Shown here in pieces: positions 4,776-32,995 of a stretch of DNA of 33,980 nucleotides (position 1 is its first letter; each line of letters begins with the position of its first letter). The DNA comes from Thermoleophilaceae bacterium (lineage in GTDB: Bacteria > Actinomycetota > Thermoleophilia > Solirubrobacterales > Thermoleophilaceae): positions 1 through 33,980 of the forward strand of contig JACCVG010000185.1 in assembly GCA_013698335.1 (NCBI GenBank). Direction: 5' to 3'. A model generated the notes under the pieces. The model worked only from the letters and a program-made list of their open reading frames with translations. It did not search any database and was not told where the DNA came from. The translations under genes were made by a program, and so were the position numbers.

Positions 4776-6532
4776 GCTCGCGGGCACCGGGCCCCGCCGA
4801 GCCCCGGATTGCGGTCCTCGCGCGGCGCGGCAGGCTTACGGTCGCTGAGCCGGTCTTCGAGCGCGGTGGCGGCCGGGTGGCGCTCGAGGGCCGGGCGCGT
4901 GGTGATGCGCAGCCCGGCGACCTCGTCCTGCTCGGCCGCGGCAAGCGCGGAGTACGGGTCGTGCGACGGGTCGGGCGCGCGTCGGTCACGCGTGACGTGC
5001 TCGAGGGGCTGATGCTCGAGCGAGGGCTGCGGCGGCGATTCCCGACCGGGGTCGAGTCCGAGGCAGCTGAGGTCTCGCACAGCCCCGCTCGTGGGATGGA
5101 CGCCGTCGGGCGGGCCGACCTGCGAGCCCTGCCGACCCTGACGATCGATCCGACCAGTGCACGCGATTTCGACGATGCCATCTCGGCCGAGGCGCTGGGC
5201 GACCGCGTCCGGGTCTGGGTCCACATCGCCGATGTGAGCGCCTACGTCCGGCCCGGCACGGCGCTCGAGAAGGAAACCTTGCGCCGCGCGACCAGCGTCT
5301 ACGTCCCCGGGGCGGTCGAGCCGATGCTCCCGGAAACGCTCTCCAACACCGCTTGCTCGCTGGTGCCCGGCGAGGACAGGCTCGCCGTGAGCGTCGAGCT
5401 GGAGCTGGACGGTGCCGAAGTGCGTTCGGCCGCCTTCACGCGTTCGCTGATCCGCTCTGACGCACGGCTGACCTATGACCAGGTGGACGCCGTCTTCGCG
5501 GGTGCCGAGCGCGCAGCGGACCCGTGGGGCGAGCCGCTCGCGCTGGCGCGCCGGGTGGCGGCCGAGCTGACGCTACGGCGCGAGCAGCGCGGGGCCCTGG
5601 CGATCGAGTCGAGCTCTGAGCCGGCCTTCGGCTTCGACGCCGCCGGGCGGGTCGAATCGGTCGCGCGCGAACGGCAGACGGAATCCCATCGGCTGATCGA
5701 GGCGCTGATGATCCTCGCCAACGAGCAGGTCGCGGGGCTACTCTCCGATCGTCGCCTGGCGACGCTCTACCGGGTCCACGAGCGCCCTGATCCGGCCGCC
5801 GTGGAGGCGCTCGTCGGGAAGCTGGCCTCGCTCTCGGTCCCGACGCCACCGATGCCGCGGTCGATCGCGCCGCAGCAGGCCGCCGAGCTCGTCGGGGAGA
5901 TCAGCGTCATGGTCGCCGAGCACGTTCGATCGAACGGCGGGCGCGGCGCGGCGGCGTTCACCTCGCTCGTGCTCCGCTCGCTCAAGCAGGCCTACTACTC
6001 GCCCCGCAACCTCGGCCACACGGGCCTCCAGAGCACACGCTACTGCCACTTCACCTCGCCGATCCGCCGCTACCCCGACCTCGTCGCACACCGCGCCCTG
6101 CTCGCCGCGATCGGCGCCGACGACGTCGCGCCGCGGGCCGACGCGCTCGAAGAGGCGGCGGCCTGGTCGAGCCAGGTCGAGCGCGACGCGATGCGGATCG
6201 AGCGCTCGGCCGATGACATCTGCCTCGCCTTCCTGCTCGAGCGCTCGCTCGCCGAGCGGGCGCACGACGATCGCGACTTCAACGGCGAGGTCGTCGGGCT
6301 GATCGGGTCGGGGGCGTTCATCCGATTCGGCGCCGAGGGGTTCGAAGGCTTTCTGCCGGTCCGCCGCATGCAGGGCTACTGGACGCTCAACGAGCAGGAG
6401 ACGATCCTCTCGACCGGCAGCCCCGGCGGGACGCTGCGGTTGGGTGATCCGGTTGCGGTCCGGGTCGATCGCGTTGAGCCGCTCCGCGGCCGCACGGACC
6501 TGGTGCTCGCCGAGGATCGACGGGTAGCGTAG
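4772..6532 (+). CDS. rnr: Ribonuclease R / RNB family exoribonuclease
   Basis: RNB motif TIDPTSARDFDDAIS; FTSPIRRYPDLVAHR; C-terminal S1-like region; precedes smpB. Confidence 0.92.
   Translation: MSSRAPGPAEPRIAVLARRGRLTVAEPVFERGGGRVALEGRARGDAQPGDLVLLGRGKRGVRVVRRVGRASVTRDVLEGLMLERGLRRRFPTGVESEAAEVSHSPARGMDAVGRADLRALPTLTIDPTSARDFDDAISAEALGDRVRVWVHIADVSAYVRPGTALEKETLRRATSVYVPGAVEPMLPETLSNTACSLVPGEDRLAVSVELELDGAEVRSAAFTRSLIRSDARLTYDQVDAVFAGAERAADPWGEPLALARRVAAELTLRREQRGALAIESSSEPAFGFDAAGRVESVARERQTESHRLIEALMILANEQVAGLLSDRRLATLYRVHERPDPAAVEALVGKLASLSVPTPPMPRSIAPQQAAELVGEISVMVAEHVRSNGGRGAAAFTSLVLRSLKQAYYSPRNLGHTGLQSTRYCHFTSPIRRYPDLVAHRALLAAIGADDVAPRADALEEAAAWSSQVERDAMRIERSADDICLAFLLERSLAERAHDDRDFNGEVVGLIGSGAFIRFGAEGFEGFLPVRRMQGYWTLNEQETILSTGSPGGTLRLGDPVAVRVDRVEPLRGRTDLVLAEDRRVA
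6525..6530 (+). promoter_or_regulatory. Candidate -10 box TAGCGT, 8 nt before smpB ATG
   Basis: TAGCGT aggcggcg ATG; same box and spacing as mscS at 18710. Confidence 0.35.
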
Positions 6533-6538
6533 GCGGCG

Positions 6539-7012
6539 ATGGCCAAGAAGGGCAAACGGAAGGCGGCGCCGGGCGATGTCGCTACCAATCGCCGGGCGTC
6601 GTTCAAGTACACGCTGACCGATCGCTGGGAATGCGGAATGGTGCTCCAGGGCTCCGAGGTCAAGTCGATGCGCGCCGGAGCGGTCCAGCTAAAGGACGCC
6701 TACGCGGCCGTCGACGGTGGCGAGGTGTTTCTCCACAACATGCACGTCGCGCCCTACCCGGCGGCCTCGCGAGAGAACCACGAGCCCGAGCGGGTGCGCA
6801 AGCTGCTGCTCCACGAGCGCGAGATCGAGCGGATCCTCGGGAAGACCAACGAGAAGGGGCTGACGCTGGTGCCGACAAGGGTCTACTTCTCCGGACGCAA
6901 CGCCAAGGTCGAGATCGCGCTGGCGCGCGGCAAGGACCTCTACGACAAGCGGCGTGACCTCAAGGCCAAGGACGCCCGTCGCGAGATCGAACGCGGTCTA
7001 CGTGGGGAGTGA
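6539..7012 (+). CDS. smpB: SsrA-binding protein SmpB
   Basis: NRRASFKYTLTDRWECGMVLQGSEVKSMRAG...KDLYDKRRDLKAKDARREI. Confidence 0.97.
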   Translation: MAKKGKRKAAPGDVATNRRASFKYTLTDRWECGMVLQGSEVKSMRAGAVQLKDAYAAVDGGEVFLHNMHVAPYPAASRENHEPERVRKLLLHEREIERILGKTNEKGLTLVPTRVYFSGRNAKVEIALARGKDLYDKRRDLKAKDARREIERGLRGE

Positions 7013-18723: not shown

Positions 18724-19614
18724 ATGGCGACCTGGATTCCCGAGACCAAGAGCCACGAGTGGGAGCAAGCCGGACTTTCGGCCCAGCTGGTCCACCGCAA
18801 CGCGGTGCGCGCGCGCTTGGAGCTGCTCGTCCTGGGGCCGCTGATCGCGGGGGTGCTCGTCGTATACAACCTGCGCGAGGAACTCGAGCTGCCCGAGATT
18901 CCTGTCCGGATCGGGGCCGTCCTGCTGCTCGTCCTGCTCGGCTACCGGCTCGCGCGCGACCTCGGGCGGATGATGGGCCCGACGCTGCTGCGCCGCGTCG
19001 AGCCGGGTACGGCTGGCACGCTCGGCTTCCTGATCCGGTTGTCGACGATCGGGATCGCGATCATCGTCGCGCTGAACGTGGCTGGGTTGGATCCCGCAGC
19101 GCTCGCGGTCGGTGGCGCGGTCACCGGTGTCGTGATCGGCCTCGCGGCCCAGCAGACACTCGGCAACGTGTTTGCCGGCACGGTCCTGTTGACCGCCCGC
19201 CCGTTCCGTGTCGGGGAGCGCGTGCGGTTGCTGGGCGGCAACGTTAACGGGCAGATGGAGGCGACGGTCAGTTCGCTCGGGCTGCTCTACACGACGTTCA
19301 TGAGCAAGGGGGAGCGGATCATGATCCCGAACAACATCGTTATGCAGCTTGCGATTCAGCCGCTGCGCGAGCCCTCGGCGATCGACGTCCGCGCGCGGGT
19401 CTCGTCGGGAACCCGACCGACCGACCTCCAGCGGATCCTCGCCGAGCGTGTGACGATCGCGACGCGCGGCGTCCCCCGAATCGATGTCGAGGAGGTCGAC
19501 GGGGATGAGGTAGTTGTACGTGTGACGGCGACCCCCGCAGACGAAGCAGACGGCGCGCAGCTCGCCGACGAGGTCGTCGCTGCCCTCTCCCAGAACGAAG
19601 ACCCGGAGGCCTAG
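18724..19614 (+). CDS. Small-conductance mechanosensitive channel (MscS family)
   Basis: VGGAVTGVVIGLAAQQTLGNVFAGTVLLTARPFRVGERV, then beta domain. Confidence 0.93.
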   Translation: MATWIPETKSHEWEQAGLSAQLVHRNAVRARLELLVLGPLIAGVLVVYNLREELELPEIPVRIGAVLLLVLLGYRLARDLGRMMGPTLLRRVEPGTAGTLGFLIRLSTIGIAIIVALNVAGLDPAALAVGGAVTGVVIGLAAQQTLGNVFAGTVLLTARPFRVGERVRLLGGNVNGQMEATVSSLGLLYTTFMSKGERIMIPNNIVMQLAIQPLREPSAIDVRARVSSGTRPTDLQRILAERVTIATRGVPRIDVEEVDGDEVVVRVTATPADEADGAQLADEVVAALSQNEDPEA

Positions 19615-19615
19615 C

Positions 19616-20458
19616 ATCTCAACATCGGAGACGCCGGCAGTCGGCCCCGAGGGTGGGCCGATCCGCCCGCGCGAGGCAACCGCCGCCGCGCGGATCGGAG
19701 TCCCGGCACGCGGCAACCGCCGGCTCGACGCGCTGCTGGCGGCGGCCAACTCCGACGAGCAACTCAAGGCGTGGTGGCACATGCAGCACGTCAACGCCAA
19801 CCGGCTCGGGATGTCCGACCACTCCTGGGTTCACATCCAGATCGTGAGCAACATCGCCCTGCGCCTGTTCCGCCTGCTCCACCGGCGCGGCATCGAGCCG
19901 GTGATGGTCACCGAGCACCTGATGCGCGCACACGACGCCGAGGTCGTGATCCTCGCCGGGGCCCTGATGCACGACGTCGGCATGTCGATCCATCGCACCG
20001 ACCACGAGGCCTACAGCCTGTTCCTCGCCGCGAGCAAGCTGCCGCAGCTGCTCGAGCAGGTCTACGAGGAGCCCGAGCGCACCGTCGTCGTCGCCGAGGC
20101 GCTGCACGCGATCATCGGCCACCGCCGTCGCGGTGATCCGTTCACGCTCGAGGCTGGCGTGCTGCGGGTCGCCGACGCGCTCGATCTCTCGAAGGGCCGC
20201 TCGAGAGTTCCGTTCGAGCAGGGTCGACTGAACATCCATTCGCTCTCGGCCGCTGCGATCGACGAGGTCAAGATCTCCGCCGGACGCGACAAGGCGGTGC
20301 GGATCGAGATTGCGATGAACAACTCCTCGGGCATCTTCCAGGTCGATGAGTTGCTCGCGACCAAGCTGCGCGGCTCAGGCCTCGAGGACCACGTCGAGGT
20401 GATCGCGCGGATCGACGCCGAGCACGAGAAACGCCTCGTCCCGGTCTTTCGGATCTAG
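19616..20458 (+). CDS. HD-domain phosphohydrolase-like protein; inferred ATC start (first in-frame ATG is 19781)
   Basis: GGAGG (19605-19609) lies 6 nt before ATC; frame gives (M)STSETPAVGPEGGPIRPREATAAARIGVPARGNRRLDALLAAANSDEQLKAWWHMQHV; HD motif LMHDVGMSIHRTDHE. Confidence 0.8.
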   Translation: MSTSETPAVGPEGGPIRPREATAAARIGVPARGNRRLDALLAAANSDEQLKAWWHMQHVNANRLGMSDHSWVHIQIVSNIALRLFRLLHRRGIEPVMVTEHLMRAHDAEVVILAGALMHDVGMSIHRTDHEAYSLFLAASKLPQLLEQVYEEPERTVVVAEALHAIIGHRRRGDPFTLEAGVLRVADALDLSKGRSRVPFEQGRLNIHSLSAAAIDEVKISAGRDKAVRIEIAMNNSSGIFQVDELLATKLRGSGLEDHVEVIARIDAEHEKRLVPVFRI

Positions 20459-31033: not shown

Positions 31034-31070
31034 CAACGAACCGCTCCGCGGGACGCGATAGAACCCAACC

Positions 31071-32995
<1,925 letters not shown>

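What the first reader, a model, noticed from the sequence alone, without database searches (positions are those of the whole stretch)
19526..20458. HD-domain gene with an apparent ATC start behind a perfect Shine-Dalgarno
Frame 2 is open from 19526 (after TGA 19523-19525) and contains no ATG, GTG or TTG before ATG 19781, yet the sequence upstream of 19781 reads as protein (PREATAAARIGVPARGNRRLDALLAAANSDEQLKAWWHMQHV). ATC at 19616-19618 sits 6 nt after GGAGG (19605-19609) and 2 nt past the upstream MscS TAG (19612-19614), a typical translational-coupling geometry. Initiation there adds 55 residues (ISTSETPAVGPEGG...). ATC is permitted by genetic code table 11 but common gene callers ignore it, so the gene would normally be annotated truncated.
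Basis: partly seen in the sequence, partly recalled or inferred. Interest (0 to 1): 0.75.

Follow-up and report, generated by a model that had tools for sequence, protein, structure and literature searches.

The report
HD gene starting at ATC codon
A soil-type actinobacterium's HD-domain enzyme gene has no ordinary start codon in front of its conserved beginning, and probably starts at the rare codon ATC, a habit that other genes of this bacterial family seem to share, so standard gene finders would cut the protein short.

Summary
The HD frame is open from 19526, has no ATG/GTG/TTG before 19781, and ATC 19616 sits 6 nt after GGAGG and 1 nt after the MscS TAG. Orthologues and a structure model show that the residues before 19781 are real protein: invariant P30, L37 and W54 from Actinomycetota to Chloroflexota, pLDDT above 90 from residue 21, and a helix spanning residue 56. 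A start at 19781 is therefore rejected.

ATC 19616 is the best start in the sequence as given (SD energy -9.5; GGAGG at this spacing precedes 0.45% of internal ATC codons). It is not proven. In four near relatives the ATG/GTG start aligns with codon 3 (TCG 19625), the hexamer coding signal begins there, and a leaderless-type -10 (TAGCAT) lies 7 nt upstream. One base change there, real or an assembly error, could have removed an ordinary start.

The wider result came from following it up. rapZ, in this window and in three other genera, has ATC as its only usable start. holA of a closed genome of the family has ATC exactly where about 28 relatives have ATG/GTG. bioD has CTG. ATC initiation is therefore likely a family habit. 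The principle is known (Streptomyces infC ATC, sigR GTC); these cases are new members.

The parts
18724..19614 (+). MscS-family mechanosensitive channel gene; its last codons carry the SD and its TAG lies between SD and ATC
   Evidence: Pfam PF00924 at 29.8 bits, above cut-off; ORF
19605..19609 (+). GGAGG Shine-Dalgarno, 6 nt before ATC 19616
   Evidence: Sequence; anti-SD duplex -9.5 kcal/mol
19612..19617 (+). TAGCAT, -10-like hexamer (TANNNT) of the type that precedes leaderless genes; includes the MscS stop codon
   Evidence: TANNNT 5-8 nt upstream of 13.4% of gene starts against 0% of internal codons; 5% of tight gene pairs
19616..19618 (+). ATC, proposed start codon (codon 0)
   Evidence: only near-cognate with a strong SD in the region where orthologues start
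19625..19627 (+). TCG (codon 3), aligned with the ATG/GTG starts of L003, L004, L005, L009; rival lost-start position
   Evidence: hexamer coding signal turns positive here
19616..19780 (+). 55-residue N-terminal extension missed by ATG/GTG/TTG gene calling; conserved core from about 19670
   Evidence: Orthologue alignment, coding log-odds, AlphaFold2 model
19616..20458 (+). HD-domain phosphohydrolase-like gene, 280 codons from ATC plus stop
   Evidence: Pfam HD PF01966 27.1 bits, cut-off 22; orthologues in 39 of 61 related genomes
31071..31952 (+). rapZ, second gene of the window without a canonical start before Walker A; candidate start ATC 31071-31073
   Evidence: NF003828 RapZ 348.5 bits over the whole model; starts compared

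Best explanation
The gene encodes an HD-domain phosphohydrolase-like protein of about 280 residues whose N-terminus lies at or near 19616 (near certain). In the sequence as given, translation most likely starts at AUC 19616 on the mscS-HD messenger: the GGAGG in the last mscS codons binds the 16S tail, the ribosome ending at UAG 19612-14 is held within 1 nt of the AUC, and initiator tRNA pairs with it by two of three bases, giving fMet at low efficiency, possibly under IF3 restraint. Shown: gene extent, anatomy, and the lack of any canonical start. Inferred: cotranscription, coupling, AUC use and weak expression.
For: No canonical start. The core before 19781 is conserved; P30, L37 and W54 invariant in 35 sequences. 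Helix 48-63 spans residue 56, pLDDT 91-97 over residues 21-50. ATC lies inside the scatter of orthologous starts, with SD -9.5. G015 aligns without gaps from codon 0 (FTTS.. to ISTS..) and starts upstream at TTG. AUC use recurs in the family: rapZ in G000, G015, G004 and G010; holA in closed genome G003. SD-supported ATC gives low but above-background initiation in Mycobacterium smegmatis (PMC4633059); infC starts with ATC in Streptomyces, and sigR uses GTC behind a very strong SD (PMC5472188).
Against: Codons 0-2 score as non-coding (-6.1) and the signal turns positive at codon 3. Four near relatives start at the position of codon 3, all of them followed by Glu as here. TAGCAT lies 7 nt before it. 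A draft MAG cannot be read-checked. No same-genus genome shows whether ATC is kept.
Confidence: 0.55

Rival explanations
1. The gene belongs to the leaderless type: TAGCAT is the -10 and the normal start was at 19624/19625, as ATG/GTG followed by GAG in relatives. A single-base difference, a real mutation or an assembly error, has removed or shifted that start in this contig.
For: Codon 3 aligns with the ATG/GTG starts of L003, L004, L005 and L009; 70 canonical starts in the sample sit 6-7 nt after TANNNT; coding signal starts at codon 3; the MAG does hold an apparent nonsense change in another gene (L192).
Against: Requires an unseen base change. TAGCAT overlaps a stop codon, so TAGNNT can arise by chance, and no -35 is evident. 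Orthologous starts scatter widely. Several other genes lack a canonical start, two of them (rapZ, murJ) in more than one genus and one (holA) in a closed genome, so assembly error is not a general explanation.
Confidence: 0.3
2. Another near-cognate codon in frame starts translation: CTG 19580 inside mscS, ATC 19661 or ATC 19694.
For: CTG 19580 has SD energy -7.1 and ATC 19661 has -8.0; G006 (L011) has an in-frame GTG at the position of 19661; some orthologues start at codons 12-26.
Against: Weaker SD; the region 19580-19615 scores as non-coding (-8.1), while 19625-19660 scores as coding (+4.0).
Confidence: 0.1
3. Translation starts at ATG 19781 and the upstream similarity is a remnant (truncated or decaying gene).
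For: First canonical start; standard callers would choose it.
Against: It would remove invariant P30, L37 and W54 and cut helix 48-63; coding signal upstream is strong (+20.2 over 29 codons); the rest of the ORF is intact.
Confidence: 0.03

Closest known systems
infC (IF3) ATC start in Streptomyces and ATT start in E. coli
   Same: Near-cognate AUN start in a chromosomal gene, missed by ordinary gene callers (PMC5472188)
   Different: Different gene; here infC itself starts with GTG in every relative read; no autoregulation is expected
sigR GTC start in Streptomyces
   Same: Actinobacterial gene with a rare start behind a very strong SD, giving a protein start other than the annotated one (PMC5472188)
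   Different: GTC, not ATC; proven by mutation, whereas here only inferred
Non-canonical starts of Deinococcus deserti (Baudet et al. 2010, known here by title only, from the reference list of PMC3305630; paper not held)
   Same: Non-canonical initiation codons in several genes of a GC-rich bacterium; leaderless genes in the Deinococcus-Thermus phylum (PMC12340547)
   Different: Different phylum; there proteomics supports the starts
Leaderless genes of mycobacteria and Deinococcus (-10 6-7 nt before the start)
   Same: TANNNT 6-7 nt before many starts here too
   Different: In M. smegmatis leaderless starts need ATG or GTG, and ATC served as negative control (PMC4633059); holA and rapZ here suggest leaderless ATC

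Membership tests
Genes with a near-cognate (ATC/ATT/GTC-type) start codon | No ATG/GTG/TTG in frame upstream of conserved protein sequence | tested here: met
Genes with a near-cognate (ATC/ATT/GTC-type) start codon | Near-cognate codon at the position where orthologues start | tested here: inconclusive
   ATC is within the scatter of starts, but four near relatives align 3 codons downstream
Genes with a near-cognate (ATC/ATT/GTC-type) start codon | Strong SD at proper spacing | tested here: met
   GGAGG, 6 nt, -9.5 kcal/mol
Genes with a near-cognate (ATC/ATT/GTC-type) start codon | Same rare start kept in close relatives | not testable with these tools
   No other genome of the genus is held; orthologues in other genera have canonical starts
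Genes with a near-cognate (ATC/ATT/GTC-type) start codon | N-terminal peptide or mutational proof; IF3 dependence | not testable with these tools
   Needs experiment
HD domain (PF01966) | Score above Pfam gathering cut-off, with conserved His/Asp residues | tested here: met
   27.1 against 22 bits; H119, H126, D129, H130 and D187 invariant
PPX/GppA C-terminal HD-like domain | Significant fold match | tested here: inconclusive
   Best Foldseek E 6e-3, TM about 0.35; no PDB sequence hit
Leaderless genes | -10 6-7 nt upstream and an in-frame start codon at the transcript 5' end | tested here: not met
   TAGCAT is present, but the in-frame codon is TCG 19625; ATC 19624 is out of frame

The most novel reading that the evidence does not exclude
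Thermoleophilaceae tolerate AUC (and CUG) as start codons in a sizeable set of core genes (rapZ, holA, bioD, this HD gene, possibly murJ, rlmD, pth), including AUC at the very 5' end of leaderless mRNAs, a context reported to be inactive in mycobacteria. This would imply relaxed start-codon checking in the lineage and systematic 5' truncation of its annotated proteins.
Probability: 0.45. Interest if true: 0.65.

Novelty: new member of a known kind. Interest (0 to 1): 0.45.

Why it matters
Common gene callers allow only ATG, GTG and TTG, so proteins with other starts are truncated or missed, and Walker A or catalytic regions can be lost (rapZ here). A lineage where the same essential gene carries ATC in some genera and ATG/GTG in others at one aligned position lets one test how start-codon fidelity evolves, and whether leaderless mRNAs can start at AUC.

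Tried and rejected
Start at 19781: rejected by conservation, coding signal and the structure model. Pseudogene: rejected, the ORF and conserved HD residues are intact. IF3 gene as a lineage precedent: infC starts with GTG in the relatives read. Same-genus genomes: none held, and a search of 399 genomes of the class found nothing closer than the G010 orthologue. The raw rate of genes with coding signal before the first canonical start is not clearly higher than in Rhodococcus pRHL1 or Sinorhizobium pSymB stretches, whose few cases look like gene fragments; I therefore rest the family claim on aligned genes, not on the rate. The gene in L145 has TAGGCT-6 nt-ATC, but relatives start at scattered sites, so it is only a candidate. 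No PDB sequence relative; no defence-system hit.

Full report
CHECK. The sequence is as described. TGA 19523-25 precedes an open frame to TAG 20456-58 with no ATG/GTG/TTG before 19781. GGAGG 19605-09, TAG 19612-14 and ATC 19616-18 are in place; the gap from TAG to ATC is 1 nt. The window is contig C55 of a 2.07 Mb draft MAG in 248 contigs, 85% complete, related to Thermoleophilaceae/Solirubrobacterales MAGs. No other genome of its genus is held.

GENE EXTENT. Searches found the gene in 39 of 61 related genomes and in further Solirubrobacter, Chloroflexota and Gemmatimonas records. The sequence before 19781 is conserved: R/P-R-E/D-A ... A-P-T-R-G-N-R-R-L-E ... A-A-N-x-D-x-Q-L-K-A-W-W-H. Over 35 sequences P30, L37 and W54 are invariant, N34 and D47 nearly so (residue 1 = codon 19616, residue 56 = ATG 19781). 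The AlphaFold2 model (mean pLDDT 84.6) has helices 18-23, 35-46 and 48-63 with mean pLDDT above 90 in each block from residue 21 to 60; residues 1-12 are disordered. Hexamer log-odds are +20.2 for 19694-19780, +3.2 for 19661-19693, +4.0 for 19625-19660, -6.1 for 19616-19624 and negative before. The annotated-style start at 19781 is wrong; the start lies upstream of about 19660.

WHICH CODON. In-frame near-cognates are CTG 19580, ATC 19616, ATC 19661 and ATC 19694. Anti-SD energies are -7.1, -9.5, -8.0 and -2.0. About 3% of 6233 internal in-frame ATC codons reach -9.5 and 0.45% have GGAGG in this spacing window. Orthologous canonical starts mostly scatter from codon -11 to +8 relative to ATC 19616, a minority starting at codons 12-26. 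In favour of 19616: best SD, correct region, coupling geometry, and an ungapped alignment with G015 (FTTSAHGASAPPDGPLSPRDA to ISTSETPAVGPEGGPIRPREA) whose TTG start lies five codons further up. In G015 an oppositely oriented ABC-transporter pair lies between mscS and HD, so the tight mscS-HD junction of the window may be a derived arrangement that brought a ready SD in front of a former inner codon (inference). Against 19616: four near relatives (L003, L004, L005, L009) begin with ATG/GTG aligned to codon 3 (TCG 19625), each followed by a Glu codon as here; coding signal begins there; and TAGCAT 19612-17 is a -10 of the leaderless type 7 nt upstream. TANNNT 5-8 nt upstream marks 13.4% of gene starts in the sample and none of the internal control codons, with 6-7 nt the commonest spacing; in tight gene pairs the figure is 5%. 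An ordinary start at 19624/19625 lost by one base, in nature or in the assembly, therefore remains a serious rival (0.3). I give ATC 19616 0.55.

WIDER PATTERN. A hexamer survey of 0.63 Mb of the same MAG (430 well-scored genes) and 0.4 Mb of closed genome G003 of the same family (266 genes) listed further genes with coding signal before any canonical start. rapZ in this window (RapZ model NF003828 matched over its full length from residue 4) has TAG 31059-61, then AAC CCA ACC ATC GAA GAT, with the first ATG after Walker A. Its homologous codon is ATC with no canonical start in G000, G015 (TGA CAC ATC), G004 and G010, and ATG or GTG in G001, G016 and G023. ATC is also the inner residue in relatives that start upstream, so it may be an old codon that took over the start. 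holA in closed genome G003 reads TAG CCT CGC GCC ATC GCC GAG CTG; about 28 relatives have ATG or GTG at or next to that codon, nearly all at exactly that codon, often 6-7 nt after TAGNNT. bioD has CTG in this MAG and in G011 where about 20 relatives have ATG/GTG/TTG. murJ has no canonical start in this MAG or in G010, and no good near-cognate either; this stays unexplained. pth in G003 may start at CTG in a CTGA overlap. The recurrence in several genera and in a closed genome argues against assembly error as the general cause. The raw rate is not clearly above that of two control replicons, so no frequency is claimed.

FUNCTION. Pfam HD (PF01966, 27.1 bits, cut-off 22) with invariant His/Asp residues. 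Fold search gives only weak similarity to the C-terminal domain of exopolyphosphatase/GppA (E about 6e-3, TM 0.35). An HD phosphohydrolase of unknown substrate is the fitting description.

COMPARISON. Rare starts are known: infC ATT/ATC and sigR GTC, the latter behind a very strong RBS (PMC5472188). In M. smegmatis SD-supported ATC initiates weakly (0.2% of selected reads) and leaderless initiation required ATG or GTG (PMC4633059). The SD-supported ATC proposed here is therefore biochemically reasonable and probably weak; leaderless ATC as suggested for holA and rapZ would be more surprising.

LIMITS. No reads, no same-genus genome and no expression data. All initiation claims are inference from sequence.

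Noticed in passing
window 31059-31130 (rapZ): rapZ has no ATG/GTG/TTG before Walker A; ATC 31071 is the only reasonable start, 6 nt after TAGAAC, and the same lack of a canonical start with ATC at the homologous codon holds in G015 (L198), G004 (L205) and G010 (L212).
   Followed up: yes
L300:11662-12624 minus (holA, closed genome G003): ATC at the codon that is ATG/GTG in nearly all of about 28 relatives, 6 nt after TAGCCT: apparent leaderless ATC start.
   Followed up: yes
L187:11549-12223 (bioD) and L228: CTG at the codon that is ATG/GTG/TTG in about 20 relatives.
   Followed up: partly
L119 minus, upstream of 2491 (murJ) and L265: No canonical and no good near-cognate start although the promoter-like TACTATAGC and the protein are conserved; several relatives start with GTG 6 nt after TATAGC.
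   Followed up: partly
L192:1085-1200: Histidine-kinase-like gene interrupted by an in-frame TAG (nonsense change or assembly error).
   Followed up: no
L290:215-817 (pth) and L123 minus 5549-6928 (rlmD): First canonical start lies inside the conserved domain; CTG (in a CTGA overlap) and ATC are candidate starts.
   Followed up: partly
L307-L336 upstream of holA: TAG, in several cases the stop of the upstream ORF, doubles as the start of the -10 (TAGNNT) of the next, leaderless-type gene.
   Followed up: partly
L086-L115 (infC): infC begins with GTG in a TAGTG context in the relatives read, so the ATC/ATT start known for infC elsewhere is absent in this order.
   Followed up: yes
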